Shown piece after piece: positions 29,644 through 49,068 of a DNA stretch of 64,000 nt (positions are counted from its first letter, which is position 1; every line of letters begins with the position of its first letter). Both the position numbers and the translations under genes were made by a program. Under the pieces are notes generated by a model. The model was given only the letters and a program-made list of their open reading frames with translations, did no database searches and had not been told where the DNA came from. The stretch lies in the NCBI RefSeq assembly GCF_014205275.1, contig NZ_JACHND010000001.1, positions 806,001 to 870,000 on the forward strand. Reading direction: 5' to 3'. This DNA is from Sphaerisporangium siamense (GTDB lineage Bacteria; Actinomycetota; Actinomycetes; Streptosporangiales; Streptosporangiaceae).

Positions 29644-29844
29644 TCAGACGATCGCGCGAGCCACGTAGACCGTGCGTGGCGGCGAATATTCGACGACGAC
29701 GATGATCGTCCCCACCGGGATCTCCTCGCCGGGAACCGATGGGTGCGCGTAGAAAGCCTCAACGCCCCCGCGTATCGGCACGAGAACCTCGCCCACGAGC
29801 CCCGGCCCGATCTTGCCGGTCACCCTGCCTTGTTTCCCGACCAC
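29644..29844 (-). CDS. Short NfeD-like OB-fold protein
   Basis: A 66-residue protein that matches only the C-terminal OB-like domain of NfeD (GKQGRVTGKIGPGLVGEVLV, then GTIIVVVEYSPPRTVYVARA). No membrane helix is present, unlike full NfeD/YuaF. It is the first gene of the flotillin operon, and NfeD proteins bind flotillins, so it is probably a soluble flotillin partner. GTG 29844 follows a GCAGGG ribosome site. Confidence 0.7.
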   Translation of the reverse strand: MVGKQGRVTGKIGPGLVGEVLVPIRGGVEAFYAHPSVPGEEIPVGTIIVVVEYSPPRTVYVARAIV

Positions 29845-30252
29845 CCCTGCACCCCGTCGCCTGCTATAGGCCGCGAACGCGAACGTTACCCCGTTTGCCC
29901 CGTCACATCAGCAGCCGACGAAGACTTGTTATCGTTCGTCGTCACGTCTCTGATGTCCACACGCTTCGCCATCATCCCGGCCAACGACCGGACCGCGCAC
30001 CGCGTTCCCCACATCCCGCCCGAATCCCAACGAACCATCGGCCCGGGGAACCGGGGGCCGCGCGGGGCTCCGGGCGTACGGCCCCGCCGCGCCGGGATGG
30101 CATGGGCGATCCCCCGTCGGCGCGCGAAGTCAATCGGTCGGCGCCGGATGCGAATGACTCCCCCGCGCCTCCCGTCCCAGCATTTATCTCGGGACGCCGG
30201 CCGCGAAAAGCGCGGCGAAACGGCGAAAGCCCATCAATGACGGGAGAGAGAA
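29845..30252. other. Non-coding divergent promoter region
   Basis: This 408-base region separates the leftward flotillin operon from the rightward exported protein. A frame from 29953 is open for about 95 codons, but it has no ribosome site and no domain, and its composition is not gene-like. I see no convincing gene; it should hold the two divergent promoters. Confidence 0.5.
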
Positions 30253-36548: not shown

Positions 36549-39092
36549 ATGGGTTCTGGAAAGCGGTCCATCCGCTTCAAGATCTTTTCATTGCTGCTGC
36601 TTACCCTGCTGTCACTCAGCGCTTTATGGGGATTCGTCCTTAATCTGACGATGGGGGACGGCGTCTCGCTGGCCCGGGCCAACACCGTCTACCAGAGCAT
36701 CGGCGTCACCTCCACCGACCTCGGGCTCCAGATCCAGGCCGAGCGCCACCTCTCGGTGGCCAAGCTCAGCGGCGCCTCCGGGAACGCCGACCGGCTCGCC
36801 GCCCAGCGCCACGCCACCGACCTGTCACTGGCCAAGTTCCAGGCCGAGACCGTCGCCGACTCCGGGGACGCCTCCGACGCGATGCGGTCGGCGCTGGTCA
36901 GCCTCAGGGACGAACTGCGGCAGCTCCCCTCGATCCGCGCCGGCGTCGACACCGGGCGCACCACCCGCCTGGAGATCGTCCAGTCGTACGACCGGCTCAT
37001 GGACGTGCTGTTCCACCTGTACGACCGCATGGTGTCCGTGCCCGACCTCGCCATCTACGAGCAGGCCGGCGCGATGCAGGCCATGGGCAACGCGCGCGAG
37101 TACATCGCGCGCGAGAACGCGCTGATCAGCGGGGCACTGGTCACCGGACGCCTGTCCGACACCGAATACGTCGCCTTCGCCGACTGGGCCGCCAACCGCC
37201 GCGCGCAGTTCGCCAAGGGCATGGTCTCGCTGGACCCCGAGCTGCGCACGCCGTACCAGGAGGTCGCCGCCTCCCCCACCTACAAGCGCTACGTCACCAT
37301 GGAGCAGGAGGTCGTCCTGCGGGCGCGCTCCGGCGCCCCCCTGCCGTCCTCGCTGAGCCAGTGGCGGGCGATCACCGACAACCTGTCGGCGATGCTCGAC
37401 CAGGTCGGCGTCAAGGCGTCCCACACCCTCGCCGACCGCGCCGGCGACGTCGCGACCGGCATCCTCATCCGCATCGCGATCGCCGGCGGATTCGGCCTGA
37501 TCGCCCTGATGGCGTCCGTCGCCTTCTCGGTGCGCTTCGGCCGCGGCCTCGTCCGCGAACTGGCCGTGCTGCGCAACTCCGCCCGCGAGCTCGCCGACGT
37601 GCGCCTGCCGCAGGTCGTCGACCGCCTGCGCCGCGGCGAGGAGGTCGACGTCGAGGCCGAGGCGCCCGGCATCGAGGAAGGCGACTCCGCCGAGGTCTCC
37701 GACGTCGCGCGCGCGTTCGGCTCGGTGCGGCGCACCGCCGTCGAGGCCGCGGTCGAGCAGGCCAACCTGCGCCGCGGCGTCAGCCAGGTCTTCCTCAACC
37801 TCGCCCGACGCAAGCAGGGGCTGCTGCACCGCCAGCTCACCCTGCTGGACGCCATGCAGCGCCGCGCCACCGAACCCGAGGCCCTGGCCGACCTGTTCCA
37901 CCTCGACCACCTCACCACCCGCATGCGCCGCCACGCCGAGAGCCTCATCATCCTGTCCGGCGCGGCGCCCGGCCGCGCGTGGCGCAAGCCCGTCCCCGTC
38001 ATGGACGTCGTACGCGCCGCCGTCTCCGAGGTCGAGGACTACACGCGGGTCACCATCATGGCCCTCCCCGGCACCCACGTCAGCGGCACCGCGGTCGCCG
38101 ACCTCATCCACCTGATCGCCGAGCTCATCGAGAACGCGACGATCTTCTCGCCGCCGCAGACGCGGGTGCTGGTGCGCGGCGAGGCGGTGGCCAACGGCTT
38201 CGCCATCGAGATCGAGGACCGGGGCCTCGGGCTCAGCCTCACGGAGTACGACGCGGTCAACGAACGGCTCGCCCACCCGCCGGAGTTCGACCTGGCCGAC
38301 AGCGACCGGCTCGGCCTGTTCGTGGTCGGGCAGCTCGCGGCGCGCCACGGCGTCAGCGTGACGCTGCGCGCCTCGCCGTACGGCGGCACGACGGCCATCG
38401 TGCTCCTGCCCAAGTCGCTGGTCGCCGACGAGGGCACACCGATGCCCATCCCCGGCGCCGAGATCGTCGCCGAGCCCGTCGCCCTCGACGCGCCGCCGCG
38501 CCACGCCGCCCCGGCCCTGGCCGCGGCCCCCGAGCCGCCGCCGTCCCCGTTCTTCACCGCGCCCACCTCCCGCGGCTCCGAACCTCCCCTTGCCGAGCCG
38601 ACCCTCGCCGGACCGGCCGTCCCCGCGCCCTCGCCGGCCGTGCAGGACGAGAAGCCCGGCGCCCGCGCGTCCGTCGCCACGGGTACCCACCGGGGCCTGC
38701 CGCGCCGGGTGCGCCAGGCCAACATGGCGCCCCAGCTCCGCCAGGACACCGGCCCACTGTCCGCGCCCACCCCCGCCGACGTGACCCCGCCGTCCCCCGG
38801 ACCGGGAGAGCGCTCACCCGAGCAGGCCCGCGCCCTGTTCTCCGCCTTCCAGCAGGGCGGCCGCCGCGGACGCCTCGAAGCCGAAGACGACGGTCCCGAC
38901 GCCACGCGCACCCGCCGTCCGGGAGACGAGCCGCTGAGCAGCGACGACGCCGCCAAGCCCCTGCCCGGCAGGAGTTCCGGGCACGACGCACCCGTCAGCA
39001 TCCGACCGGACGAGCGTGACCAACGGCGCGACCTGCGCGACCATAGTGATGGTTACGTACACCAGACGACTGGCGAGAAGGGCGACGAATGA
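36549..39092 (+). CDS. cvnA: Conservon sensor kinase-like protein CvnA
   Basis: An 847-residue membrane sensor. TM1 (about 10-30) and TM2 (about 300-322) flank a helical nitrate/nitrite-sensing-like NIT domain. A HAMP-like linker, a helical dimer region and a HATPase domain follow (N box IAELIENATIF, G1 EIEDRGLGL, G2 RLGLFVVGQLAARHG). The last 200 residues are a disordered Pro/Ala tail. In Streptomyces conservons, CvnA recruits CvnB-D at the membrane in a GPCR-like complex that controls development and antibiotic production. ATG 36549 is chosen over GTG 36543 because AGGAG is five bases upstream. It overlaps cvnB by four bases (ATGA). Confidence 0.9.
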   Translation: MGSGKRSIRFKIFSLLLLTLLSLSALWGFVLNLTMGDGVSLARANTVYQSIGVTSTDLGLQIQAERHLSVAKLSGASGNADRLAAQRHATDLSLAKFQAETVADSGDASDAMRSALVSLRDELRQLPSIRAGVDTGRTTRLEIVQSYDRLMDVLFHLYDRMVSVPDLAIYEQAGAMQAMGNAREYIARENALISGALVTGRLSDTEYVAFADWAANRRAQFAKGMVSLDPELRTPYQEVAASPTYKRYVTMEQEVVLRARSGAPLPSSLSQWRAITDNLSAMLDQVGVKASHTLADRAGDVATGILIRIAIAGGFGLIALMASVAFSVRFGRGLVRELAVLRNSARELADVRLPQVVDRLRRGEEVDVEAEAPGIEEGDSAEVSDVARAFGSVRRTAVEAAVEQANLRRGVSQVFLNLARRKQGLLHRQLTLLDAMQRRATEPEALADLFHLDHLTTRMRRHAESLIILSGAAPGRAWRKPVPVMDVVRAAVSEVEDYTRVTIMALPGTHVSGTAVADLIHLIAELIENATIFSPPQTRVLVRGEAVANGFAIEIEDRGLGLSLTEYDAVNERLAHPPEFDLADSDRLGLFVVGQLAARHGVSVTLRASPYGGTTAIVLLPKSLVADEGTPMPIPGAEIVAEPVALDAPPRHAAPALAAAPEPPPSPFFTAPTSRGSEPPLAEPTLAGPAVPAPSPAVQDEKPGARASVATGTHRGLPRRVRQANMAPQLRQDTGPLSAPTPADVTPPSPGPGERSPEQARALFSAFQQGGRRGRLEAEDDGPDATRTRRPGDEPLSSDDAAKPLPGRSSGHDAPVSIRPDERDQRRDLRDHSDGYVHQTTGEKGDE

Positions 39093-39496
39093 CCGGCAAA
39101 GTATCGTCGAATGGCGAACTCAACTGGCTCCTCGACGATCTGATCAGCAGGGTCGCGGCCGTGCGCCAGGCGGTCATCCTCTCCACCGACGGCCTCGTCG
39201 TGGGCGCCTCCTCCGGCTTCAGCCGCGAGGACGCGGAGCACCTGTCGGCGGTCGCGTCCGGCTTCCAGAGCCTCGCCCGGGGGGCGGGCCGCCATTTCGG
39301 CGGCGGCGACGTACGCCAGACCATCGTCGAGATGGAGTCGGCCTTCCTGTTCGTCACCGCCGCCGGCACCGGCACCTGCCTCGCCGTGCTGAGCAGCTCC
39401 GACGCCGACGTGGGCCACATCGCCTACGAGATGGCCATGCTCGTCAAGCGCGTCGGCCAGCACATCTCCACCAATCCCCGGCGGACGTTGTCATGA
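39089..39496 (+). CDS. cvnB: Conservon roadblock/LC7 protein CvnB
   Basis: A 135-residue roadblock/LC7 domain protein. It opens with NGELNWLLDDLISRVAAVRQ, followed by VILSTDGLVVGASSGF and the central RQTIVEMESAFLFVTAA, the conserved pattern of CvnB. It dimerises and is thought to link CvnA to the small GTPase CvnD (MglB-like role). Both ends overlap neighbours by four bases, so the operon is translationally coupled. Confidence 0.92.
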   Translation: MTGKVSSNGELNWLLDDLISRVAAVRQAVILSTDGLVVGASSGFSREDAEHLSAVASGFQSLARGAGRHFGGGDVRQTIVEMESAFLFVTAAGTGTCLAVLSSSDADVGHIAYEMAMLVKRVGQHISTNPRRTLS

Positions 39497-39867
39497 CGAC
39501 GCGGGGAGAGCAATGGCTCGACGAGGAGGCCGGGCCGATCGTCCGGCCCTACGCGCTCATCCGCGGGCGCACGCGGTCCTCCGCGGACAATCTCGACCTG
39601 ATCGCTATGGTCACCGCGACCGGCGCTCCGTACACTGGCGAGACCGCTCTGGGCCCCGAGGAGACCCGCATCCTCGAACTGGCCGAGCGGCCGATGTCGG
39701 TGGCGGACATCGCCTCCGAGATCGACCTGCCGCTCGGTGTGGTCCGCGTCCTCCTCGGCGACCTGCACGACCAGGACCTGATCAGCGTACGGGCCCCCGC
39801 CCAAAAGGGACCGCGCCCCAACGAGCGCATTCTCAAGGAAGTGATCAATGGCCTACGAGCCCTCTGA
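39493..39867 (+). CDS. cvnC: Conservon DUF742 protein CvnC
   Basis: A 124-residue DUF742 protein. Conserved parts are IVRPYALIRGRTRSSADNLD at the front and a winged-helix-like C-terminal half (MSVADIASEIDLPLGVVRVL, then LHDQDLISVRAP). CvnC is the third conservon partner, with no known catalytic role. ATG 39493 overlaps the cvnB stop (ATGA), and its end overlaps cvnD by 20 bases. Confidence 0.9.
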   Translation: MTTRGEQWLDEEAGPIVRPYALIRGRTRSSADNLDLIAMVTATGAPYTGETALGPEETRILELAERPMSVADIASEIDLPLGVVRVLLGDLHDQDLISVRAPAQKGPRPNERILKEVINGLRAL

Positions 39868-40423
39868 GGAGCCGGTCGCCCTCAAGATCCTGGTGGCGGG
39901 CGGGTTCGGCGTGGGCAAGACCACGCTGGTCGGGGCGATCAGCGAGATCCGCCCGCTGCGCACCGAAGAGGTCCTGTCCGACCGCGGCATCGGCGTGGAC
40001 GACCTCGACGGCGTCGAAGGCAAGACGACCACCACGGTCGCCATGGACTTCGGGCGCATCACCATCCGCGAGGGCCTGGTCGTCTACCTGTTCGGCACGC
40101 CCGGCCAGGAGCGTTTCTGGTTCATGTGGGATGAACTGTCCTACGGCGCGCTCGGCGCCGTCGTCCTGGCCGACACACGCCGCCTCACCGACTGCTTCCC
40201 CTCGATCGACTACTTCGAGCAGCGGGGCACGCCGTTCATCGTCGCGGTCAACTGCTTCGACGGCGCCGAACGCCACGAGGCCGAGGACGTCCGCATCGCC
40301 CTCGACCTCGACCCGGACATCCCCGTCATCATGTGCGACGTCCGCCGCCGCGCCTCAGCAAAGGTCGTCCTGGTCACCTTGGTCGAACACGCCCTCCGCA
40401 CACTAACCCCCGCCGCCGGATAA
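39848..40423 (+). CDS. cvnD: Conservon small GTPase CvnD
   Basis: A 191-residue MglA-like GTP-binding protein. The P-loop is GGFGVGKTT, switch II is GTPGQERFWFMWDEL, and the base-recognition motif is VNCFDG, in place of NKxD. It cycles between GTP and GDP states and is the output switch of the conservon. Its presence makes this conservon complete. A terminator follows the stop. Confidence 0.93.
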   Translation: MAYEPSEEPVALKILVAGGFGVGKTTLVGAISEIRPLRTEEVLSDRGIGVDDLDGVEGKTTTTVAMDFGRITIREGLVVYLFGTPGQERFWFMWDELSYGALGAVVLADTRRLTDCFPSIDYFEQRGTPFIVAVNCFDGAERHEAEDVRIALDLDPDIPVIMCDVRRRASAKVVLVTLVEHALRTLTPAAG

Positions 40424-40437
40424 CGCCCAAACGCGAC

Positions 40438-40471
40438 ACGGCCCTCCCGAAACCACCTCCGAGAGGGCCGT
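40438..40471 (+). terminator. Terminator of the complete conservon
   Basis: ACGGCCCTC (40438-40446) and GAGGGCCGT (40463-40471) form a perfect 9-bp stem 15 bases after cvnD. The 16-base loop can pair a little further. Confidence 0.75.
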
Positions 40472-40514
40472 ACGTTATGCGCGCGGCGCCCTCCGGTGCT
40501 GTGGCTCCGTGAGG

Positions 40515-40601
40515 TTCCGCGTGGCTCCCGTGAGTGGTTCCGCGTGGTTCCGTGAGCTGTTCCGCGTGGTTCCGTGAGTGGTTCCGTGTGGTTCCCGATT
40601 G
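40515..40601. repeat. 22-bp tandem repeat, about four copies
   Basis: A 10-base half (TTCCGCGTGG) alternates with a 12-base half (TTCCGTGAGTGG). Copies run 40515-40537, 40538-40559, 40560-40581, and a degenerate one 40582-40601. It lies directly before the larger repeat copies and has no coding sense. Confidence 0.8.
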
Positions 40602-41034
40602 TTCCGTTCGAGGTCGCGTAGTTCTGGGGTGGGCTAACGGCGCGCAACCACGACGGAGCCGCACGGGTGGGCTCAACACACCTCAACCACGGCTACGAAT
40701 ACGGGTTTGCCGTGGCGGACCGCCCAGTGCACATCGCTGGAGTCGGCGGTTTTGGGACTGGGAGAAGTCTGAGAGCCCACCCGTGCGGGTCCGTCGTGGT
40801 CAGCCGCCGTTAGCCCACCCAGAAGTACGCACCAATAGAACGCCGACAGAACACACCGATGTTCCGTTCGATGGTCGCGCAGCTCTGGGGTGGGCTAACG
40901 GCGCGCAACCACGACGGACCCGCACGGGTGGGCTCAACACACCTCAACCACGTCAACCTTCAACACCACGGCTACGAATACGGGTTTACTGTGGCGGACC
41001 GCTGTCAGCCCACCCATTAATGCGCATCGCTGGA
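40601..41034. repeat. Composite repeat: two direct long copies and one inverted core
   Basis: Copy A (40601-40741) and copy B (40861-41034) start with GTTCCGTTCG and are near-identical, except that B has about 18 extra bases near 40950 and a different patch near 41003. A 52-bp core (A about 40622-40673, B about 40884-40935) is present a third time in inverted orientation at 40773-40824. The motif GTGGGCT or its complement appears seven times in all. A and the inverted core could fold into a very long hairpin. No gene is seen in 40424-41099. Confidence 0.85.
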
Positions 41035-41099
41035 ATGTCGGGAGACCCACCGATCGGCCGAATGCAGAGGCGGGCGGTGTCGGGTGGCCCTGGGGGTCG

Positions 41100-41489
41100 T
41101 CACACGACGGCGACGGCGTCGACTTCGACGAGGAAGCCCGGGCCCAGGCCGGCCACCACGTGGACCGTGATGGCCGGGGGTGGATCGGCGCGGTTCCATA
41201 CCTCCTGGAAGGCTGCCACGCCCTCGTCGAACGTGTGGCCCTCCACGACGGCGATGCGCCAGTGGACGATGTTCGCCAGGGTCCCGCCCTCGCTTTCCAG
41301 GATGGTCGCGAGGTTGCGGAACACCTGCCGGGCCTGCTCCCCGACCGTGGGGCCGACGACCCTGCCGTCGGGGCCGACGCCGTTCTGCCCCCCGATGTAG
41401 ATCGTCTTGGCCGGCTGTTCGACCACGACGGCCTGGCTGAAGGCCGGGCTGCGGTGCATCCCCGGAGGGTTGATGTGTCGGACGCCCAT
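41100..41489 (-). CDS. RidA-family protein lacking the catalytic arginine
   Basis: A 129-residue YjgF/YER057c/UK114-fold protein (SQAVVVEQPAKTIYIGGQNG, GEQARQVFRNLATILESEGG). In active RidA the C-terminal PAR motif supplies the arginine that binds the 2-aminoacrylate carboxylate. Here the sequence reads DPPPAITVHVVAGLGPGFLV, with Ile at that place. It is therefore probably not a classical imine deaminase but belongs to another Rid subgroup. GAGGAG precedes ATG 41489. It is divergent from a CGNR regulator and shares three palindromes with it. Confidence 0.82.
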   Translation of the reverse strand: MGVRHINPPGMHRSPAFSQAVVVEQPAKTIYIGGQNGVGPDGRVVGPTVGEQARQVFRNLATILESEGGTLANIVHWRIAVVEGHTFDEGVAAFQEVWNRADPPPAITVHVVAGLGPGFLVEVDAVAVV

Positions 41490-41510
41490 CCGTGACTCTC
41501 CTCTGACGAA

Positions 41511-41590
41511 GACACCGGCATAACCGGTGTCAGACCTAACACAGACACCAGTTATACAGGTGTCGCTGGAACACCAGTTATAGTGGTGTC
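41511..41590. promoter_or_regulatory. Three 21-bp palindromic operators between ridA-like and CGNR genes
   Basis: Sites at 41511-41531, 41544-41564 and 41570-41590 share the form ACACC(A/G)GTTATA-like core with GGTGT on the far side; the first reads in the opposite direction. Centres are 33 and 26 bases apart. The third ends at the base before ATG 41591 and contains TATAGT (41579-41584), six bases from the start codon, so the site would cover a leaderless promoter. Autoregulation by the CGNR protein is the simplest reading. Confidence 0.8.
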
Positions 41591-42193
41591 ATGCGCGCGA
41601 AGGCAACCGGACGGACGCTGCACGACCCCAAGGGAGGGTCGTTCTGGTTCGACGCCGGCGCCGCCTGCCTCGACTTCGCCCACAGCGGCGGCGAAGGCCC
41701 CTACGCGGTGTTCGAAACCCTCCACAAGCCAGCGGACCTGGCCGAATGGCTGACCAAGCCGCCGATCGCCGCCATCATGACCGTCCCCGTAACGGCCCGC
41801 GAGCTGTCCGCCGCCAAGGCCCTCCGCCAGGCGATCTGGGACACGGCGCACGCCCAGGCCGCACGCCGCCCCCTCTCCGCCGAAGCGATCGCCACCATCA
41901 ACCGGGCCTCCGCCGCGGCACCGTTGGCCCCCCAGCTGGCCCCCGACGGCACCACGGCGGAATGGGCGCCACCGGTACGGGCCGCACAAGCGCTGTCGAC
42001 GCTGGCGCGGGAGATGATCGAGCTGCTGTCCGGGCCGCTCTCCGGCCGTATCCGCGAATGCGCGAGCGACAACTGCCCCCTGGTCTTCGTCGACACGTCC
42101 CGCCCCGGCGCCCGCCGCTGGTGCGCGATGGAACGCTGCGGCAACCGCCACAAACTCCGAGCCCTCCGCGCCCGCCGAGCCGGCGACCCATGA
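41591..42193 (+). CDS. ABATE/CGNR zinc-finger regulator
   Basis: A 200-residue protein with an N-terminal ABATE-type ligand or enzyme-like domain (GGSFWFDAGAACLDFAHS) and a C-terminal CGNR zinc finger (ECASDNCPLVFVD, WCAMERCGNRHKLRALRARR). The family is believed to be transcriptional regulators that sense a small ligand. ATG 41591 directly abuts a palindrome, has no ribosome site, and has a -10-like TATAGT six bases upstream, so the mRNA is probably leaderless. Its likely targets are itself and the divergent Rid gene. Confidence 0.85.
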   Translation: MRAKATGRTLHDPKGGSFWFDAGAACLDFAHSGGEGPYAVFETLHKPADLAEWLTKPPIAAIMTVPVTARELSAAKALRQAIWDTAHAQAARRPLSAEAIATINRASAAAPLAPQLAPDGTTAEWAPPVRAAQALSTLAREMIELLSGPLSGRIRECASDNCPLVFVDTSRPGARRWCAMERCGNRHKLRALRARRAGDP

Positions 42194-42313
42194 CGCGCCC
42201 GAGCATGGCGCACCGCATCTGTTCGGATCGACCGCGCCGGCCCCCTGACCGAAGGCCGGTGATCCGCTCGGTACCGCCCCTCGCATCGGCCACAACGCCC
42301 TCGCGACCGTACG

Positions 42314-42820
42314 CTACGCGATCCCGGCGGGGCCGGACTTCAGGTAGGCCTCGGAGATCGACGGCCACGGTATGCCCGGAGCGTCGCGGCTGCCGTCCAC
42401 CAGTCCTTTGAAAAGGGAGATCTCTCCCTGTGCGACCGGAAGCTCGTGAATGGACCACAGCGGCTCCCGCATGTCCAGCCGCTCCAACCGTGCGATCTCA
42501 TGACCGTACGCGTACCAGCCCGCCGCGAAGATCTCCGGCATGTCCACCCACAGGCCATAGTGACAGAGGCCGACGGCCAGACCACGGCGTCCGAAATGGC
42601 ACTGCAAGAAGCCGAACTTGAGATAGTCGAATTCGTCCGAGCGTCCCGATCGTTCGAGGTCGCTGATGCATATGCGCGCGATGTACTCCGCCAGGTCACC
42701 GTCTGACGCCTCACGGTGCGCCGCCACGGAGTACGAGTAGAGCTTCACTCTCCACCCGAACTCGCGCACCTCGCACAGGCCCATATATCGCGCCGGCCGG
42801 GGACGGAGGGCCTCATTCAT
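42314..42820 (-). CDS. Unknown protein, last gene of low-GC operon
   Basis: A 168-residue protein with no family I recognise. It is mixed alpha/beta with many aromatic residues (CHYGLWVDMPEIFAAGWYAY) and a conserved-looking front (RYMGLCEVREFGWRVKLYSY). No signal peptide or membrane helix is seen. ATG 42820 follows GGAGGGGG and overlaps the upstream SDR stop by eight bases, so it is translationally coupled and part of the same operon. Its base composition is lower in GC than the core genome. Confidence 0.75.
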   Translation of the reverse strand: MNEALRPRPARYMGLCEVREFGWRVKLYSYSVAAHREASDGDLAEYIARICISDLERSGRSDEFDYLKFGFLQCHFGRRGLAVGLCHYGLWVDMPEIFAAGWYAYGHEIARLERLDMREPLWSIHELPVAQGEISLFKGLVDGSRDAPGIPWPSISEAYLKSGPAGIA

Positions 42821-43529
42821 GAATGTCCCCCTCCATCGGACGCACGATGATCTCCTCCACCACCGCCTGCTCGCTGAGGTCCAGGCAGGCGGACAGGAGC
42901 GTGCCGATGTCACTGGGCCGAAGGAGGCGGTCCGGGGGAAGCTCCTCGCCCTCCCACATGTCCGTGAGCGTTCCTCCGGGCGAGATGAAGGTCACGCCGA
43001 TTCTCTCGGCGGCGAGTTCCCGGCGCAGATTGACGGCCAGGCCGCGAAGCCCCACCTTCGCGACTCCGTAGCTCGGCACCATCGGGTAGGGCTCGTACGC
43101 GGCGGTCGAGCCCGTCATGAATATTCTGGGCCGCTTCCCTCGCCGAAGACACGGAATCAGCTCGCGGGCCGCCACCAGGTAAGAGTTCAGGTTGACATTG
43201 AGATCGTGAATGTAGTCGACGACCTTGATCTCCAGCAGGGATCCATCGGTGTAGGTGCCGGCGTTCAACACCAGCACATCGAGTGCGCGACCGCCGGCCG
43301 CCGAATCCCTCCATACGGAGAGCTTGTCGGCCAAGCCCTGCAGATCAGCCAGATCATGGGCGATCGCGTCGAACCTGCATTGGGGGTACCGGCCGACGAC
43401 GAATCGCGACAGTTCACGAATATGTGAGCCATGCGCGGCGAGCACGGTGAGCTCATCCAAGCGGGGCAGGATCGCCTCGACGATGGCTCTTCCGATACCA
43501 CGGGTCCCACCCGTGACAAATGCCCTCAT
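42813..43529 (-). CDS. SDR-family oxidoreductase in low-GC operon
   Basis: A 238-residue short-chain dehydrogenase resembling 3-oxoacyl-ACP reductases. It has TGGTRGIG at residue 6, LNAG, and the active site TGSTAAYEPYPMVPSYGVAK with Ser and Tyr-Lys. PSYGVAKVGLRGLAVNLRRE is intact, so activity is likely; the substrate is unknown. ATG 43529 is preferred because it places the Rossmann motif at the N-terminus as usual, with a weak GGGAACGG upstream. ATG 43547 and 43571 are alternatives. One sampled 60-base line (43201-43260) has 33 G+C, far below the flanking genes. Confidence 0.85.
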   Translation of the reverse strand: MRAFVTGGTRGIGRAIVEAILPRLDELTVLAAHGSHIRELSRFVVGRYPQCRFDAIAHDLADLQGLADKLSVWRDSAAGGRALDVLVLNAGTYTDGSLLEIKVVDYIHDLNVNLNSYLVAARELIPCLRRGKRPRIFMTGSTAAYEPYPMVPSYGVAKVGLRGLAVNLRRELAAERIGVTFISPGGTLTDMWEGEELPPDRLLRPSDIGTLLSACLDLSEQAVVEEIIVRPMEGDIHE

Positions 43530-43583
43530 CGCCACCGTTCCCGTCATCTGATAACCGCGCCGCGACATCATCGGGTGACGATG

Positions 43584-44123
43584 CTACGACGACCCCATTA
43601 ATCCATGGATCCGCCGCCGAATGAACGGGGCCGACCATTGGACAAGATGTGGATGACGCTCGAACAGCCGCCAGTCCTGACCTGTGACACGTCGGCGGCA
43701 CCGCGCGGACTCGCAGTCGCACGCGTTCTTCATCACGTACCCCGGATCGGCCTCCCAGTAGGCGTAGTCGACCGTCAGCTCCTCACCCGTGGCGATATCG
43801 CACAACGTCACCAGATTGACGGCGTCGGTCATCCCGAGATTGGGTGAACACGAGTGGTTGAGGTAGTCGGACAAGTCTTTGCCGACCATCGGGTGCCCGC
43901 CGAGCAGCACGAACTCCGCGACACCCACCGCGGAGCCCGGTTGCACGGCGTCCACGTCATAGCGGGCCGACAACGGGAAAAGGTGGCCGCCGAACCTGAT
44001 GACGGCATGACCTGCCGGTATCGGCCCCACCGTGAAGACGCCGTGTCCGTGTATCGCCGACGCCGCGATCGTCAAGTCCGCGTGGATCCAGCTATTCAGA
44101 TCCGGAGGGGCCGACCTCAGCAT
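43584..44123 (-). CDS. Bacterial SET-domain lysine methyltransferase-like protein
   Basis: A 179-residue SET domain. Seen are the N-terminal SAIHGHGVFTVGPIPAGHAV (the GxG of SET), the core LSDYLNHSCSPNLGM with the knot-forming NHSCxPN, GEELTVDYAYWEADP with the catalytic Tyr, and a post-SET Cys cluster (NACDCESARCRRR) that would bind zinc. SET proteins methylate lysine with SAM; bacterial ones are scattered and few have known targets. The start is uncertain; ATG 44123 overlaps the previous gene by 32 bases, and ATG 44165 or 44174 would add residues. Confidence 0.82.
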   Translation of the reverse strand: MLRSAPPDLNSWIHADLTIAASAIHGHGVFTVGPIPAGHAVIRFGGHLFPLSARYDVDAVQPGSAVGVAEFVLLGGHPMVGKDLSDYLNHSCSPNLGMTDAVNLVTLCDIATGEELTVDYAYWEADPGYVMKNACDCESARCRRRVTGQDWRLFERHPHLVQWSAPFIRRRIHGLMGSS

Positions 44124-44994
44124 AAGATCTGACTCTCTCGTAGAGGTCTGATATGTACGAGACATAGCCACCATGTATTCCGAGATCCAAGAACGTTCTC
44201 AGATAGATGTCGTAGTATATGGACTCGACAAGCCGGAGATAGTCCTTAGTGGACATGACGGATATCACGTCGGGAGTGGAGATCACGAACAGATCCGCAG
44301 GAGTTTCCGTGGCCCTGCCCAACGATTCCATTTCCATATCCGGCTGAACGTACGATATGGGAGCCCTCCGCACGGCCAGGCCACGTACACGGGCGTACTC
44401 GACGAACAGGCGGGCCTTGGCACGCGACCTGCCCGAGCCGGAAAGGGGCGGAGCTATCTCGAATACCGTGGTGAACGGATCACGCAGCACATGCCCGAGC
44501 TGCCTGCGGGCGGCCTCTATGAGGCTGTGGCTCACGCTCCCCGGCGGGGTGTCGGCGCGGTTGGCGGCACCGAGGTAGGCGATGAACGCGTAATTCCGAT
44601 GCCGGCTGACGAGCATGCTGAGAAACCCGACGACCGCACCGCCGCGTACCGCGAGATAGAGCCGATAGGCGACAGGATGCATGGTCGCCTGTGATCCGCC
44701 GTCACGGACCAGCCGGCCGGACCGCCAGGCCCCCCTCCGCGCCGCATGCCGGAGAATGATATTCGGTGCGATCTGCTGATCTTCGGGAATGAGTCCGCAA
44801 TAGAGCGCACAGAACTGGTCCGCGTACTTCTGGCTCGTCCGGCCTCCGTACGTCACGACCCGCAGTCGCCCGCTCGGCGACATCCGCCTGCGGATGACAT
44901 ACGCGGCGACGGCCAGAGTGACACCCCCCGCCACCTCGGCATAGTAGCTCGACAGCACAGCGTCGATAATTGCAGAGTGGACAGGAAGGAGCAT
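44092..44994 (-). CDS. Membrane-anchored GNAT-like protein, first gene of low-GC operon
   Basis: A 300-residue protein with one N-terminal membrane helix (about residues 17-36, EVAGGVTLAVAAYVIRRRM) and a cytoplasmic domain that looks like an acyltransferase of the GNAT fold: VAYRLYLAVRGGAVVGFLSM could be strands 3-4, and SHSLIEAARRQLGHVL the acetyl-CoA-side helix. The match is weak and no certain motif A is seen. GAGGAGGT five bases before ATG 44994 is an ideal ribosome site. Sampled lines have about 55 percent G+C (33 of 60 at 44221-44280), against 47 of 60 at 46561-46620 in the neighbouring conservon. Confidence 0.6.
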   Translation of the reverse strand: MLLPVHSAIIDAVLSSYYAEVAGGVTLAVAAYVIRRRMSPSGRLRVVTYGGRTSQKYADQFCALYCGLIPEDQQIAPNIILRHAARRGAWRSGRLVRDGGSQATMHPVAYRLYLAVRGGAVVGFLSMLVSRHRNYAFIAYLGAANRADTPPGSVSHSLIEAARRQLGHVLRDPFTTVFEIAPPLSGSGRSRAKARLFVEYARVRGLAVRRAPISYVQPDMEMESLGRATETPADLFVISTPDVISVMSTKDYLRLVESIYYDIYLRTFLDLGIHGGYVSYISDLYERVRSYAEVGPSGSE

Positions 44995-45009
44995 CGAAGA
45001 CCTCCTCGA

Positions 45010-45023
45010 ATACTCCCGAGTAT
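45010..45023. promoter_or_regulatory. Palindrome in the leader of the low-GC operon
   Basis: ATACTC (45010-45015) and GAGTAT (45018-45023) form a perfect palindrome with a 2-base centre. It sits just upstream of the ribosome site of the first operon gene, where a bound repressor or an mRNA hairpin would block expression. Confidence 0.5.
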
Positions 45024-45165
45024 GGCGCGTCCGGCGGTTATCTGGCTACCTAGCGCAAGTGGGAATGCCCGATTATGTCCTATCAATCCCGCGCGATATC
45101 GGTTCAGGCCTGCCCTTTAGCCTGGAAAGCTCCCACGGGCGCGGTCGGGATCTGTCCCGAGGGCG

Positions 45166-45621
45166 TCACAGGGCCTGGAGGCCCTTGAGTACCTCGTGGA
45201 GGAGGGAAGGGTCGTGGGTCAGAGGGGCGGGGGCCGGGGGGTGGACGGTGAGGAGGTCGCGGGCGTGGAGGTCGGAGAGGAGGAGGCGGACGACGCCGAG
45301 GGGGAGGGTCACCTCGGCGGCCAGTTCGACCAGGCGTCTCGGCCTTCGGGCGAGGTCAAGGATGCGGTGGTGCTCCGGGCCGAGCCCGGTCGGCAGGAAG
45401 ACGTCGGCCGACGGGCGGCCCGCGGCGCGGGTCGCGGGCTCCTCGGGCCAGGCCGCGGCGGCGGTCGTGGTGACGATCGCGAGGAGGTCGAAGTCGGCGG
45501 CGGGGGGCGGTGTCCTGCCTCCGGTGAGGGCGTACGGGCGCAGGACCGGGCCGTCGTCGATCCAGTCCATCTCGTCGTCCATGACGATCCGTCCCTTGAG
45601 CGCCGGATACTGCCCGTCCAT
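45166..45621 (-). CDS. cvnC: DUF742 protein of second conservon
   Basis: A 151-residue DUF742 protein with GPVLRPYALTGGRTPPPAAD and the winged-helix-like LVELAAEVTLPLGVVRLLL. It is longer than the first CvnC because of a Pro/Ala-rich insertion in the middle. ATG 45621 shares one base with the cvnB stop (TGATG), so it is coupled; GTG 45624 is possible. It is the last gene of this conservon: no cvnD follows, and the next gene in this direction is the low-GC operon. Confidence 0.88.
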   Translation of the reverse strand: MDGQYPALKGRIVMDDEMDWIDDGPVLRPYALTGGRTPPPAADFDLLAIVTTTAAAAWPEEPATRAAGRPSADVFLPTGLGPEHHRILDLARRPRRLVELAAEVTLPLGVVRLLLSDLHARDLLTVHPPAPAPLTHDPSLLHEVLKGLQAL

Positions 45622-46007
45622 CACGTCATGCCCCTTGGGTGGGTGGTGAGGTGGCGGCCCATGCGGGCGACGAGGTGGGCCATCTCGTAGGCGATGAGGC
45701 CGGCGTCCGCCCGCATTCCGCTGAGGACGGCCAGGCAGCTCCCGTCGCCGGCCGCGGAGACGAACAGCAGCGCCGCCTCCATCTCCACGATGGTCTGGCG
45801 GACGGCGCCGCCCTCGAAGCGCATGGCGGTGCCTTTGGCGAGGCTCTGGAAGGCGGCCGCGACGGCCGAGAGATGCTCGGCGTCCTCCCGTAGCAGTCCC
45901 CCCGAGGCGGCCACGCGCAGGCCGTCGTTGGACAGGATGATCGCGTGGCGCACGTCCGTCACCCGCGCCACGAAGTCGTCCAGCAGCCAGTTGAGCTCTG
46001 TCGACAT
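45621..46007 (-). CDS. cvnB: Roadblock/LC7 protein of second conservon
   Basis: A 128-residue roadblock protein very similar in layout to the first CvnB: ELNWLLDDFVARVTDVRHAI, LSNDGLRVAASGG, RQTIVEMEAALLFVSAAGDG. It starts one base after the cvnA stop (ATG 46007) and overlaps cvnC, so coupling is expected. Confidence 0.92.
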   Translation of the reverse strand: MSTELNWLLDDFVARVTDVRHAIILSNDGLRVAASGGLLREDAEHLSAVAAAFQSLAKGTAMRFEGGAVRQTIVEMEAALLFVSAAGDGSCLAVLSGMRADAGLIAYEMAHLVARMGRHLTTHPRGMT

Positions 46008-46008
46008 C

Positions 46009-48240
46009 TCACACCTCCTCGCCGTCTCGTTCGCCGTCGGCGCGTCCGCGCCGCCAGCCGGATTGCAGGGAACTCAGCAACGCCCTGGCTTCCTCGGGGG
46101 TTCGCTCCTCCGGCGCCCGGGGCCGCTCCTGCCGGGACTGAGCCGCGGGGCTCTTCTTACGGACCCGCCGGGGCAGCCCCCCGCCCGGGGAACCCGAGGA
46201 ACCTGAGGAACCCGGCGCATCCGAGGAGTTCGAGGAATCCGCAGAGGAGAAGGCGGGGTCCGGGACCGCGTCGCCGGGGTCGGGCCCCGTCCCGGGAAGC
46301 CGGGTGGGGACGGGGGTGAGGGCGCGGGGGCGGGTGGGGGGGTCGGCGGCGTGGTGGACGGTGATCAAGGGATCGGGGAGGAGGACGATCGCCGTGGTGC
46401 CGCCGTACGCGGAGCCGCGCAGCTCGACACGGATGTCGTGCCGGGACGCCAGGCGGGCGACGACGTGCAGGCCGAGCCGGTCGGTCTCGGTGGGGTCGAA
46501 CTCGGGCGGGCTGGAGAGCTTGGCGTTCAGCGCGCGCTGCTCCTCGTCGGTGAGGCCGAGCCCGCGGTCCTCGATCTCCACCGCCAGGCCGCGCGCGACC
46601 AGCTCGCCGCGCACGGTGACGTCGGTGGCGGCCGGGGAGAACCTGGTGGCGTTCTCGACCAGTTCGGCGCACAGGTGGATGACGTCGGCGGCGGCGGCGC
46701 GCGCGATCGTGACGTTCGGCATGGGCAGCACGCGCACCCGCGTGTAGTCCTCGACCTCGGCCACGGCGGCGCGCAGGGCGTCGATGGCGGCCACGTCCTC
46801 GCGGTAGGTGCGCCCGGGGTTGCCGCCGGCGAGGACGACGAGGCCCTCGGCGTGCCGGCGCATGCGCGTGGTGAGGTGGTCGACGCGGAACAGGTCGCGC
46901 AGGACGTCGGGGTCCTCGACCGTGCGTTGCAGGCTGTCGAGCACCTTGAGCTGGGCCTGGAGCAGCGTCTGGTTGCGCCGCGCGAGGTTGCGCAGGACCT
47001 TGCCGGAGGTGTCGCGGACGCGGGCCTGCTCGGCGGCGCTGTGGACGGCGGTGCGCTGGACGGTGCCGAACGCCGTGCCGACGTCGCGCACCTCGGTGGT
47101 GGTGGAGCGCACGGTGATCGTCGGCGCCTCGGCGTCGGCGTCGACCTGTTCGCCGCGCCGCAGGCGCGCGATGAGGCGCGGCAGCCGTACGGCGGCCAGG
47201 TCGGCGGCCGAGTTCCTCAGCTCGGTGAGCTCCCTGCTCAGGCCGCTGCCCACGCGGACGGCGACGATGAGCGAGGTGACGACGGCGAGCAGCCCGAGCA
47301 CGCCGGCGATCCCGGCGCGGAGGAAGGCGCCGACGGCCATCGGCCGGGCGGCGGCGACGAGGGCCTCGCCCGCCTGGGTGAGCGTCCGCTGGTAGGAGCC
47401 GTCCACCTCGTCGGTGACCGACCGCAACAGCGCGTGGGAGTATTCGAGGCCGGCCCCGGTCACCAGCGCGTCCTCCATCGCGGCGAGCCGGTGGAAGGAC
47501 GCGGAGGCCGCCAGCGCGTCGAAGGGTTCGCGGACGCCGGCCGGCAGCTCGGTGAGGGCCTGTTCGAACAGGAAGCGGCGGGTGGTGACGAGGCGGGCGA
47601 ACAGCCGCTGCTCGGCGGGGAGCATCGCCCGGCCGGAGATCAGGGCCCCGGCGGCGAGCGCGCGTTCCCGGGTGAGGAACTCCTTGGAGTAGGCCATCGA
47701 GATGAGGCCGCGCGAGCGCTGGTGGATCGACACGTCGTTGACGACGCTCATGCTGGTGACGAGCCGGTGCATGGCGTCGGAGAACTTGGCGAAGTCGCGG
47801 GTGAGCGAGGGCAGGTCCACCGAGCCGACGTCGACGGCGGAGCGGGTGGCGTCGATCCGGTCCATCGCGGCCATCGCGTCGGCGAAGCCGGTCCGCATGG
47901 CGGGGGTGGAGAGGGCGTCCTGGGCGTCGGGGCCGAGGGCGAGCCGCCGCATGCGCTCGCGGTACTCGTCGGTGCGCTGCCGCTGCTCGATCAGCGCGTC
48001 ACGGTTGCGCTGGGAGCGGGCGCCGAGGTACTCGGCGGAGAGCACGTGCTCGTGCTGGAGGGCGACGGTGAGGTCCTCGGCGGGCCTGCCGACGTTGTCG
48101 TAGAGGGCTGAGACCGAGAGCAGGTTGGTGGACTCCCGCGTCGTGACCGCGGCCCCGAAGATCCACAGGGCGGCGAGGGAGAGGAGCGGGATCACGAGAA
48201 GGGCGGTGATCTTGAATCGGATGGACCTGCTCGATGCCAT
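46009..48240 (-). CDS. cvnA: CvnA sensor of second conservon
   Basis: A 743-residue membrane sensor with the same order as the first CvnA: TM1 (about 10-28), NIT-like helical sensor, TM2 (about 300-325, AGIAGVLGLLAVVTSLIVAV), HAMP-like linker, and HATPase (CAELVENATRFSP, EIEDRGLGL, DRLGLHVVARLASRHD). A Pro-rich tail of about 120 residues follows. The ribosome site GAGG is five bases before ATG 48240. The two conservons are inverted relative to each other and may be diverged paralogues. The CvnD partner must come from elsewhere or be missing. Confidence 0.9.
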   Translation of the reverse strand: MASSRSIRFKITALLVIPLLSLAALWIFGAAVTTRESTNLLSVSALYDNVGRPAEDLTVALQHEHVLSAEYLGARSQRNRDALIEQRQRTDEYRERMRRLALGPDAQDALSTPAMRTGFADAMAAMDRIDATRSAVDVGSVDLPSLTRDFAKFSDAMHRLVTSMSVVNDVSIHQRSRGLISMAYSKEFLTRERALAAGALISGRAMLPAEQRLFARLVTTRRFLFEQALTELPAGVREPFDALAASASFHRLAAMEDALVTGAGLEYSHALLRSVTDEVDGSYQRTLTQAGEALVAAARPMAVGAFLRAGIAGVLGLLAVVTSLIVAVRVGSGLSRELTELRNSAADLAAVRLPRLIARLRRGEQVDADAEAPTITVRSTTTEVRDVGTAFGTVQRTAVHSAAEQARVRDTSGKVLRNLARRNQTLLQAQLKVLDSLQRTVEDPDVLRDLFRVDHLTTRMRRHAEGLVVLAGGNPGRTYREDVAAIDALRAAVAEVEDYTRVRVLPMPNVTIARAAAADVIHLCAELVENATRFSPAATDVTVRGELVARGLAVEIEDRGLGLTDEEQRALNAKLSSPPEFDPTETDRLGLHVVARLASRHDIRVELRGSAYGGTTAIVLLPDPLITVHHAADPPTRPRALTPVPTRLPGTGPDPGDAVPDPAFSSADSSNSSDAPGSSGSSGSPGGGLPRRVRKKSPAAQSRQERPRAPEERTPEEARALLSSLQSGWRRGRADGERDGEEV

Positions 48241-48308
48241 GACACCTCATCGGTCGGCGGGGTGCCGTAACGGACCGGCAGCCGAGGGTGAAGATCGCCG
48301 ATGAGACT

Positions 48309-48326
48309 AGCACCGTGACGGGTGCT
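48309..48326. promoter_or_regulatory. Small hairpin in the AT-rich spacer before cvnA
   Basis: AGCACC (48309-48314) and GGTGCT (48321-48326) form a 6-bp stem. The spacer 48327-48372 is AT-rich for this genome. It may end the DUF998 transcript or be an operator of the second conservon. Confidence 0.35.
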
Positions 48327-48372
48327 CTTCTTGATGAATTTGTGATATTTGGTGAATTTATCCCTTCGGGGG

Positions 48373-49068
48373 CTAGTGTCGGCTTAGGACCGCTGTCGCA
48401 CTTCCTGCGCCCCTTGCGGCATTTTCCAGACCGGCCCTGGCGCCGCTCACCGACTCCAGCCAGACCATCCGCACGAGCCACACCAGCGGGACCGCGACGA
48501 CCGCGATGTCCACCGTGAACAGCGCCCACTGCACGAGCCCCACCATGCCCTGGTGGCCCGGCAGCGTCACGTAGATCAACGCCGCGAGACCGCCGCCCGC
48601 GCCGAGCGCCAGCCACTCCAGCGGCCGGGCCGCCGCCGTCCAGCGCGCGTCCTCGCCGAAGCGGCGCACCATCAGCGCCGAGGCCCCGGCCATGCACATC
48701 AGGGCCACCGCCACCAGCACGTCCGTCGCGACGGTGCCGGGCAGCACGGCGGCGCCGGTCAGCGCGCCCGCCCAGCCGAGCATCAGGCGCTCGGGCCACC
48801 CCGAGACGGGCGCCCGCACGGCCCGCAGGCCCGCCAGCAACGGCAGGACCGACAACCCGAACAGGGCCAGCGCGATCGCGGTGTACCCGTCGTGCTCCAG
48901 CGCCGCGTACCGGCCGATCGTCAGGTCGACGCGGTCGTACGGGGCGTCGAGCTGGCCGGCCGCGAGCATGGCCGCCCCGGCCAGCATGCCGGAGGCGGCG
49001 ATCAAGGGGTAAAGCCTTCTGAGGGGCAGCATGTGATCCAGACTGCCCCGAAACGGCGCCGCGAACAT
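48373..49068 (-). CDS. DUF998-like membrane protein
   Basis: A 231-residue protein with about six hydrophobic helices and short loops, resembling DUF998 membrane proteins. There is no catalytic motif. ATG 49068 has AGGGG nine bases upstream; ATG 49032 is possible. It lies 41 bases after the xylulokinase gene in the same direction, so the two may be co-transcribed, although no functional link is known. Confidence 0.7.
   Translation of the reverse strand: MFAAPFRGSLDHMLPLRRLYPLIAASGMLAGAAMLAAGQLDAPYDRVDLTIGRYAALEHDGYTAIALALFGLSVLPLLAGLRAVRAPVSGWPERLMLGWAGALTGAAVLPGTVATDVLVAVALMCMAGASALMVRRFGEDARWTAAARPLEWLALGAGGGLAALIYVTLPGHQGMVGLVQWALFTVDIAVVAVPLVWLVRMVWLESVSGARAGLENAARGAGSATAVLSRH

What the first reader, a model, noticed from the sequence alone, without database searches (positions are those of the whole stretch)
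42314..44994. Low-GC four-gene operon (GNAT-like membrane protein, SET, SDR, unknown) of unknown purpose
Four tightly spaced or overlapping leftward genes have clearly lower GC than both sides: sampled 60-base lines have 33 G+C here and 47 in the neighbouring conservon. They combine a membrane-anchored acyltransferase-like protein, a SET-domain lysine methyltransferase with its post-SET Cys cluster, a reductase and a 168-residue protein of no known family. A strong ribosome site with a palindrome just upstream suggests controlled expression as one unit. I know of no described system with this gene set; a protein- or metabolite-modifying pathway gained by transfer is possible.
Basis: partly seen in the sequence, partly recalled or inferred. 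Interest (0 to 1): 0.72.

Follow-up and report, generated by a model that had tools for sequence, protein, structure and literature searches.

The report
Strain-specific four-gene cargo, function unproven
A short block of four foreign-looking genes, possibly enzymes that modify a small molecule, sits in a changeable spot of this bacterium's chromosome, and the same set of four was not seen in the other genomes searched.

Summary
The four leftward genes are real and atypical in composition: 63.1% G+C against 71.1% in 400 kb of the same genome; A stands out most, D only mildly. The block (42202-45136) is missing from the nearest relative, whose flanks match at 79-96% and which has unrelated genes there. 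A, B and D have no match at E<=0.001 in 10 congeners; C has none at E<=1e-25. The spot lies between two tail-to-tail conservons; in 7 of 7 relatives read across it the gap holds no A-D and varies from about 0.19 to 11.6 kb.

A has a GNAT fold by a low-confidence model. B is a SET protein with the motifs of a ~175-residue family. C is a classical SDR. D has no detectable relative. The set was not seen together elsewhere: A occurs otherwise only in three Acrocarpospora, without B or D.

So transfer is well supported; a conserved four-gene system is not. Best guess (about 0.4): a small-metabolite tailoring cassette. Joint protein modification or chance assembly of cargo remain open. The palindrome is at chance level; the membrane anchor is weak and absent from the homologues' frames.

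The parts
42202..45136 (.). Strain-specific segment (A-D with leader and tail), replaced by unrelated genes in the nearest relative
   Evidence: blastn of window 39000-49000 against L033 aligns up to 42201 and again from 45137; nothing aligns between
44092..44994 (-). Gene A, 300 aa, GNAT-fold protein with a hydrophobic N-terminal extension; no Pfam family
   Evidence: No Pfam, PHROG, PADLOC or PDB sequence hit and only a chance NCBIfam hit; AF2 pLDDT 59.7, pTM 0.61; Foldseek top hits are acetyltransferases, best E 6e-5; homologues only in three Acrocarpospora
43584..44123 (-). Gene B, 179 aa, SET-domain methyltransferase with NHSC, GEELTVDY, CDCx4C and VTGxDW motifs
   Evidence: PF00856 E 2.4e-9; alignment with 24 relatives
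42813..43571 (-). Gene C, up to 252 aa, classical SDR with TGGTRGIG and YGVAK (the start could be an internal ATG)
   Evidence: PF00106 E 1.7e-28; motifs read from the sequence
42314..42820 (-). Gene D, 168 aa orphan, overlaps C by 8 nt, ribosome site GGAGGGGG read just before it
   Evidence: No significant hit in the family libraries, PDB sequences, plasmids, phages, viral contigs or 345 genomes of the order
45001..45007 (-). Strong ribosome-binding site (GAGGAGG) of A
   Evidence: sequence read
45010..45023 (.). 14-bp palindrome before A, not above chance
45166..48240 (-). Flanking right conservon, cvnA-cvnB-cvnC, without cvnD (context, not part of the unit)
   Evidence: Pfam NIT + HATPase_c, Robl_LC7 and DUF742; tblastn of relatives
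39848..40423 (+). cvnD-type GTPase, end of the left conservon, the other border of the variable spot
   Evidence: PF03029 E 1.4e-32; 96-99% identical in relatives

Best explanation
The block is a gained, strain-specific accessory cassette in a variable spot between two convergent conservons (well supported; about 0.9 by itself). Its most likely job (inferred) is to tailor a small amine-bearing metabolite or short peptide in the cytoplasm: the SDR C reduces or oxidises a carbonyl or hydroxyl with NAD(P)H, the SET enzyme B puts a methyl group from S-adenosylmethionine on an amine or thioether, the GNAT-fold enzyme A transfers an acyl group from an acyl-CoA or acyl carrier, and D is an accessory or unknown enzyme of the same step. 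The four are probably translated from one message because their frames overlap or nearly touch. The confidence given is for the whole statement, including the metabolic role.
For: - Boundaries against the nearest relative, with other genes in the place.
- No match for A, B or D at E<=0.001 in 10 of 10 congeners, and none for C at E<=1e-25.
- Low GC3 and codon score: of 237 control genes, 5, 14, 14 and 19 have lower GC3 than A, B, C and D.
- Overlapping frames A/B and C/D.
- GNAT fold of A. Intact SET motifs in B and SDR motifs in C.
- SET proteins do sit in metabolite-like operons elsewhere: 2 of the 4 plasmid contexts I opened (of 35 records with a match). In Streptomyces sp. SAT1 one lies with a PGM1 peptide ligase, lysine 2,3-aminomutase and SidA hydroxylase. 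In Paraburkholderia phenoliruptrix a HAD-SET fusion lies with two SDRs, an HMGL-like protein, an aminotransferase and a transporter.
- In one of the three Acrocarpospora (L008) the neighbour of A, 434 bp away on the other strand, is also an SDR, though only 23% like C.
- BurB shows that a SET enzyme can methylate free methionine (PMC12542666, parts 1-2 of 4 read).
Against: - The set was not seen together in any genome searched.
- A occurs without B and D in Acrocarpospora.
- No transporter, ligase, carrier protein or pathway regulator lies inside the segment.
- The other 2 of 4 plasmid contexts (Leptospira; Streptomyces NBC_01445) and the 5 actinobacterial neighbourhoods whose frames I printed (L095, L096, L097, L099, L100) show no evident pathway around the SET gene, by my reading of unannotated frames.
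- BurB carries LLHSC where B has NHSC, so the small-molecule precedent is remote.
- A lacks the usual R/Q of the GNAT pyrophosphate loop (seen; the motif rule is recalled).
- The fold of D is unknown (pLDDT 39.6).
Confidence: 0.4

Rival explanations
1. The four genes are unrelated pieces of cargo that happened to land one after another in a tolerant spot, with no joint function; A is a mobile lone gene of its own.
For: A occurs without B and D in three Acrocarpospora genomes and is low in GC there too: 0.597, 0.602 and 0.658 against 0.667, 0.697 and 0.710 for the surrounding loci. No genome searched has the set. The gap between the conservons has different contents in the 7 relatives read, apart from two genes shared with the nearest one.
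Against: Frames overlap A/B and C/D, all four are on one strand and have similar low GC, which suggests one import event and one message.
Confidence: 0.3
2. A protein-modifying pair: B methylates and A acylates lysines of one cellular target (for example a nucleoid or ribosomal protein), with C and D accessory.
For: B is nearest by sequence to KMT2-type histone lysine methyltransferases among solved structures (E 7e-8), and the Foldseek hits of A include protein acetyltransferases such as Naa60, GCN5 and PCAF.
Against: Those hits reflect fold, and also include other acetyltransferases such as a putative streptothricin acetyltransferase and PA4794 with chloramphenicol. An SDR has no evident place in such a pair. 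No target gene is in the segment.
Confidence: 0.17
3. A conflict or toxin-antitoxin-like cassette: A is a membrane-linked GNAT effector and D its partner or antidote.
For: Variable location, an orphan partner gene, a hydrophobic N-terminus in this copy of A. In one congener (G191) the same spot holds an AAA_21 ATPase with a 157-aa partner, which is defence-like.
Against: No PADLOC hit at E<=1 for any of the four. A homologues stand without D. An SDR and a SET protein are not usual parts (recalled).
Confidence: 0.1

Closest known systems
Small (~175 aa) actinobacterial SET proteins, named in records 'SET domain-containing protein-lysine N-methyltransferase'
   Same: B shares the N-terminal W, GxG, NHSCxP, GEExTxDY, CxC...CR and VTGxDW motifs
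   Different: B is at most 44% identical over most of its length to any found (46% over 88 residues in one), on a long branch, and sits in an operon with A, C and D
BurB/MSMT SET-domain methionine S-methyltransferase (DMSP pathway)
   Same: Short stand-alone SET enzyme with a post-SET CxC...C; shows that a SET fold can act on a small molecule (PMC12542666)
   Different: BurB has LLHSC, B has NHSC; none of the downstream DMSP enzymes named in the paper (by their abbreviations a decarboxylase, an aminotransferase and an aldehyde dehydrogenase) lies in the segment
GNAT superfamily N-acyltransferases
   Same: Order of strands and helices and Foldseek hits of A
   Different: No Pfam GNAT model matches A or its homologues; extra N-terminal segment and a long C-terminal helical part
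Classical SDR oxidoreductases (FabG/sepiapterin reductase type)
   Same: Cofactor and catalytic motifs of C; best solved relative is a sepiapterin reductase, E 4e-17
   Different: No close orthologue seen in the family (no hit at E<=1e-25 in 249 other genomes, ten top candidates scored in each listed)

Membership tests
SET-domain methyltransferases | SET Pfam domain above its curated cut-off | tested here: met
   38 bits against a cut-off of 22.4
SET-domain methyltransferases | NHSC, ExxxDY and post-SET CxCx4C motifs | tested here: met
   NHSCSPN, GEELTVDY and CDCESARC in B
SET-domain methyltransferases | Methyl transfer from S-adenosylmethionine | not testable with these tools
   needs an enzyme assay
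BurB/MSMT DMSP pathway | Neighbouring genes for the later DMSP steps (decarboxylase, aminotransferase, aldehyde dehydrogenase) | tested here: not met
   The segment holds only A-D; the rest of the genome was not searched for them
GNAT superfamily | GNAT fold | tested here: inconclusive
   46 Foldseek hits at E<=0.001; the 50 listed are acetyltransferase structures by title, but TM-scores by query length are only 0.29-0.42 and the model is low-confidence (pLDDT 59.7, 4 sequences)
GNAT superfamily | Sequence match to a GNAT family model | tested here: not met
   no Pfam family for A; for the 4 members of A1 only one chance hit, E 2.7
Classical SDR | TGxxxGxG cofactor motif and YxxxK catalytic motif | tested here: met
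   TGGTRGIG and YGVAK in C; PF00106 E 1.7e-28
Horizontally acquired cassette | Absent from close relatives at the same site | tested here: met
   G172 carries other genes in the place; no A-D hit in 7 of 7 congeners read across the spot
Horizontally acquired cassette | Mobility genes, target duplications or a tRNA site | tested here: inconclusive
   No mobility gene within 42202-45136; target duplications and tRNAs at the site were not searched for
Conserved four-gene system | Genes occur together in other genomes | tested here: not met
   (samples, not all genomes)

The most novel reading that the evidence does not exclude
A previously undescribed four-enzyme pathway in which a SET-domain enzyme works on a small molecule or peptide together with a new, membrane-tethered GNAT-fold family, an SDR and a new protein family (D), carried as a compact transferable cassette.
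Probability: 0.25. Interest if true: 0.55.

Novelty: new variant of a known kind. Interest (0 to 1): 0.3.

Why it matters
If the cassette is a joint pathway, it would be another case of a SET enzyme used for metabolism rather than chromatin, and would give a first setting for two protein families without names (A and D). More modestly, it documents a site between two convergent conservons where related species carry different cargo, so that site is a place to look for accessory genes. If the genes have no joint function, it is ordinary accessory DNA.

Tried and rejected
Idea that the unit had replaced a cvnD of the right conservon (my note): rejected. In the 7 relatives read across the spot tblastn finds one cvnD only, that of the left conservon (E<=1e-4), even where only about 190 bp separate the two conservons.

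Idea that A-D form a conserved system: rejected for the data held. A was sought in 250 genomes of the family (4 hits, own included), in genome contigs (one genome for each of 84,980 species) by two peptide patterns with tblastn confirmation (3 Acrocarpospora loci on contigs of the same lengths as the three above; the own record was not returned, and the tool says such records may be left out) and as a profile in 100 genomes of the phylum (own only). D was sought in 345 genomes of the order at E<=0.1; 21 genomes besides the own were listed, E 0.012 to 0.094, one of them a congener (G182, 35 residues). I looked at the frames around 10 of those places; those I could recognise were unrelated proteins or wrong-strand frames.

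Note that A in Acrocarpospora is not near an SDR: wrong for one of three. In L008 an SDR lies 434 bp from A, divergent, 23% like C over 152 residues, and another stretch 31% like C lies about 4.4 kb away. SDRs are common, so I give this little weight.

Fold of D: AlphaFold from one sequence gave pLDDT 39.6, and Foldseek found nothing at E<=0.001, so it is not used. I thought that I recalled a family with a GWRxKxY motif like that in D; a DNA pattern for it found only D itself in 21 genomes and nothing in 118 more, so the recollection is dropped.

Plasmids, phages and viral contigs: no relative of A in plasmids or viral contigs; none of D in plasmids, phages or viral contigs. A was not searched in phages.

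Regulation: the palindrome is at chance level. The scan found no sigma-70-like promoter on the - strand and no terminator in 42000-45700. One TTA codon in B is not telling, as 26 of 237 control genes have one.

Tree of SET proteins (25 sequences): B lies on a long branch beside a group of the Paraburkholderia fusion and six small-genome actinobacterial proteins, local support 0.74; it gives no firm placement and is not used as evidence of function.

Literature: one search for SET domain with biosynthetic gene cluster, GNAT and actinobacteria gave one fungal review (listing only). I claim no more than that about print.
Full report
What is there. On the - strand between 44994 and 42314 lie four open frames, A, B, C and D. 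A is 300 aa. B starts most plausibly at the ATG at 44123 (179 aa) and overlaps the end of A by 32 nt. C has several possible starts from 43571 on. D starts at 42820 and overlaps C by 8 nt. A and D have strong ribosome sites (read). All four show GC3>GC1>GC2.

Composition. From these I picked 237 frames of at least 150 aa by their GC-phase pattern. That choice favours genes with high GC3, so the ranks below may overstate how odd the unit is; all four would themselves pass the composition rule. The sample is 71.1% GC, and its gene GC3 is 0.917 on average (sd 0.067). The unit is 63.1%, with GC3 of 0.73 (A), 0.79 (B), 0.79 (C) and 0.81 (D). On a mean log codon-frequency score, 3 (A), 11 (B), 17 (C) and 30 (D) of the 237 control genes score lower. 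The flanking genes score within the bulk. So A is clearly atypical, B and C are in the lowest 8%, and D is only mildly so (lowest 13%).

Site. The window is G000:C1:806001-870000. Two conservons face each other tail to tail: the left one ends in a cvnD-type GTPase at 39848-40423, and the right one is cvnA-cvnB-cvnC (48240-45166; Pfam NIT + HATPase_c, Robl_LC7, DUF742) without a cvnD. I fetched this place from congeners. In the nearest relative (G172) the matching flanks are 89% identical just left of the segment and 79, 90 and 95% in successive pieces to its right. The stretch 42202-45136, which is A-D with 112 nt behind D and 142 nt before A, is replaced by an APH-type phosphotransferase, a DUF5753-HTH regulator and a HATPase. 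G172 shares with the window the RidA-like and ABATE genes beside the segment, but has other genes again between these and the left conservon. In 7 of 7 congeners where the two conservons bracket the spot on one fetched stretch (G172, G108, G162, G081, G197, G031, G191; in G191 the contig begins inside cvnA), the gap is about 11.0, 5.2, 2.8, 0.19, 11.6, 1.4 and 2.1 kb, measured between tblastn ends, and tblastn found none of A-D there. For G182 only the left conservon was in the fetched stretch; G129 and G148 were not fetched. Genome-wide, 0 of 10 congeners have A, D or B at E<=0.001. For C none reached E 1e-25, with ten candidates per listed genome scored. Gain in this lineage is the simplest reading; loss in all the others is not excluded.

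Do the four travel together? A: 4 of 250 family genomes, own included; the other three are one genus. A peptide-pattern scan of one genome for each of 84,980 species returned Acrocarpospora macrocephala, A. pleiomorpha and A. phusangensis, on contigs of the same lengths. Acrocarpospora is in Streptosporangiaceae. In the 19-kb stretches around these A genes tblastn found no B or D beyond chance. In one (L008) there are SDR genes: one 434 bp from A on the other strand, 23% like C, and a stretch 31% like C over 113 aa further off. Those A proteins are 50-55% identical to A, their open frames lack about 33-43 of its N-terminal residues (in L009 the DNA match runs some 18 codons further upstream across a stop), and the genes are lower in GC than their surroundings. 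B: 42 of 394 genomes of the class and 25 of 250 of the family have a match at E<=0.001, own included, at best 44% identity over most of the length (46% over 88 residues in one). In ten fetched actinobacterial neighbourhoods and three plasmid ones tblastn found no A or D beyond chance (lowest E 0.010); a C-like SDR at E<1e-5 was near in two plasmid ones, L043 and L045. D: no credible relative anywhere searched.

Gene A. No sequence family fits. A model from four sequences (pLDDT 59.7, pTM 0.61) has the strand and helix order of a GNAT enzyme (the order is recalled). Foldseek lists acetyltransferases, best E 6e-5, with modest TM-scores (0.29-0.42 by query length). The N-terminal hydrophobic stretch is short and scores 1.28, below the usual cut-off of about 1.6 (recalled), so a membrane anchor is possible, not shown. 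The strong ribosome site favours the long form.

Gene B. The core motifs are intact. Aligned with 24 relatives, B shares the motifs of a small SET family common in actinobacteria, including a C-terminal VTGxDW. In a FastTree it lies on a long branch with no firm placement. Of 35 plasmid records with a SET match I opened four. A Streptomyces sp. SAT1 gene lies among a PGM1-type ligase, lysine 2,3-aminomutase and a SidA-type hydroxylase. A Paraburkholderia HAD-SET fusion stands between two SDRs, an HMGL-like protein and an aminotransferase on one side and a DMT-family transporter on the other. The other two, in Leptospira and Streptomyces NBC_01445, show no such setting. BurB is a SET enzyme shown to methylate methionine (PMC12542666, parts 1 and 2 of 4 read). 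These are the reasons to prefer a metabolite over a protein target. The nearest solved relatives by sequence are, however, KMT2 histone methyltransferases, which leaves the protein reading open.

Gene C is a classical SDR with cofactor and catalytic motifs; gene D is unknown.

Mechanism and verdict. Shown: an atypical, strain-specific, co-directional block in a variable spot. Inferred: one message. Inferred with less confidence: reduction, methylation and acylation of a small amine-bearing molecule. The main rival is that the block is a chance assembly of cargo. Proximity to conservons is suggestive only: the cvn8 conservon of S. coelicolor regulates specialised metabolism, including an adjacent cluster (PMC8510531, abstract and outline seen), but nothing here ties the unit to them. 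I score interest 0.3: the transfer is well supported but common, the gene set is unusual, and the system claim did not hold.

Noticed in passing
window 45166-48240 and 39848-40423: A three-gene conservon (cvnABC, no cvnD found) stands tail to tail with a conservon that ends in cvnD; the same arrangement is seen in 7 of 7 congeners read across the spot. The pair may share one GTPase.
   Followed up: partly
window 40424-45165: The gap between the two conservons is a variable spot of the genus: about 0.19 to 11.6 kb with largely different contents in 7 congeners, a place to look for accessory genes.
   Followed up: partly
L040:1204-3026: In congener G191 the same spot holds an AAA_21 ATPase (Pfam: putative AbiEii toxin type) and a 157-aa partner without a Pfam hit, a defence-like pair.
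   Followed up: no
window 41511-41590: Three operator-like inverted repeats (GACACCGGCATAACCGGTGTC and two kin) between a RidA-like gene and an ABATE/CGNR regulator that are transcribed away from each other.
   Followed up: no
window 40501-40595: Tandem repeat of a 22-bp unit, 4.4 copies (GTGGTTCCGTGAGTGGTTCCGC), just after the left cvnD.
   Followed up: no
L043:3868-10637: A HAD-SET fusion gene on a Paraburkholderia plasmid (pSYMBR3459) stands among SDR, HMGL-like, aminotransferase and transporter genes: a possible small-molecule SET pathway.
   Followed up: partly
L042:3470-14775: A SET gene on a Streptomyces sp. SAT1 plasmid lies among PGM1 ligase, lysine 2,3-aminomutase, SidA hydroxylase and tRNA-ligase-like genes: looks like a natural-product cluster.
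   Followed up: partly
window 29743-30240: Another low-GC3 frame (0.745, 165 aa, + strand) with no Pfam hit at E<=0.001.
   Followed up: no
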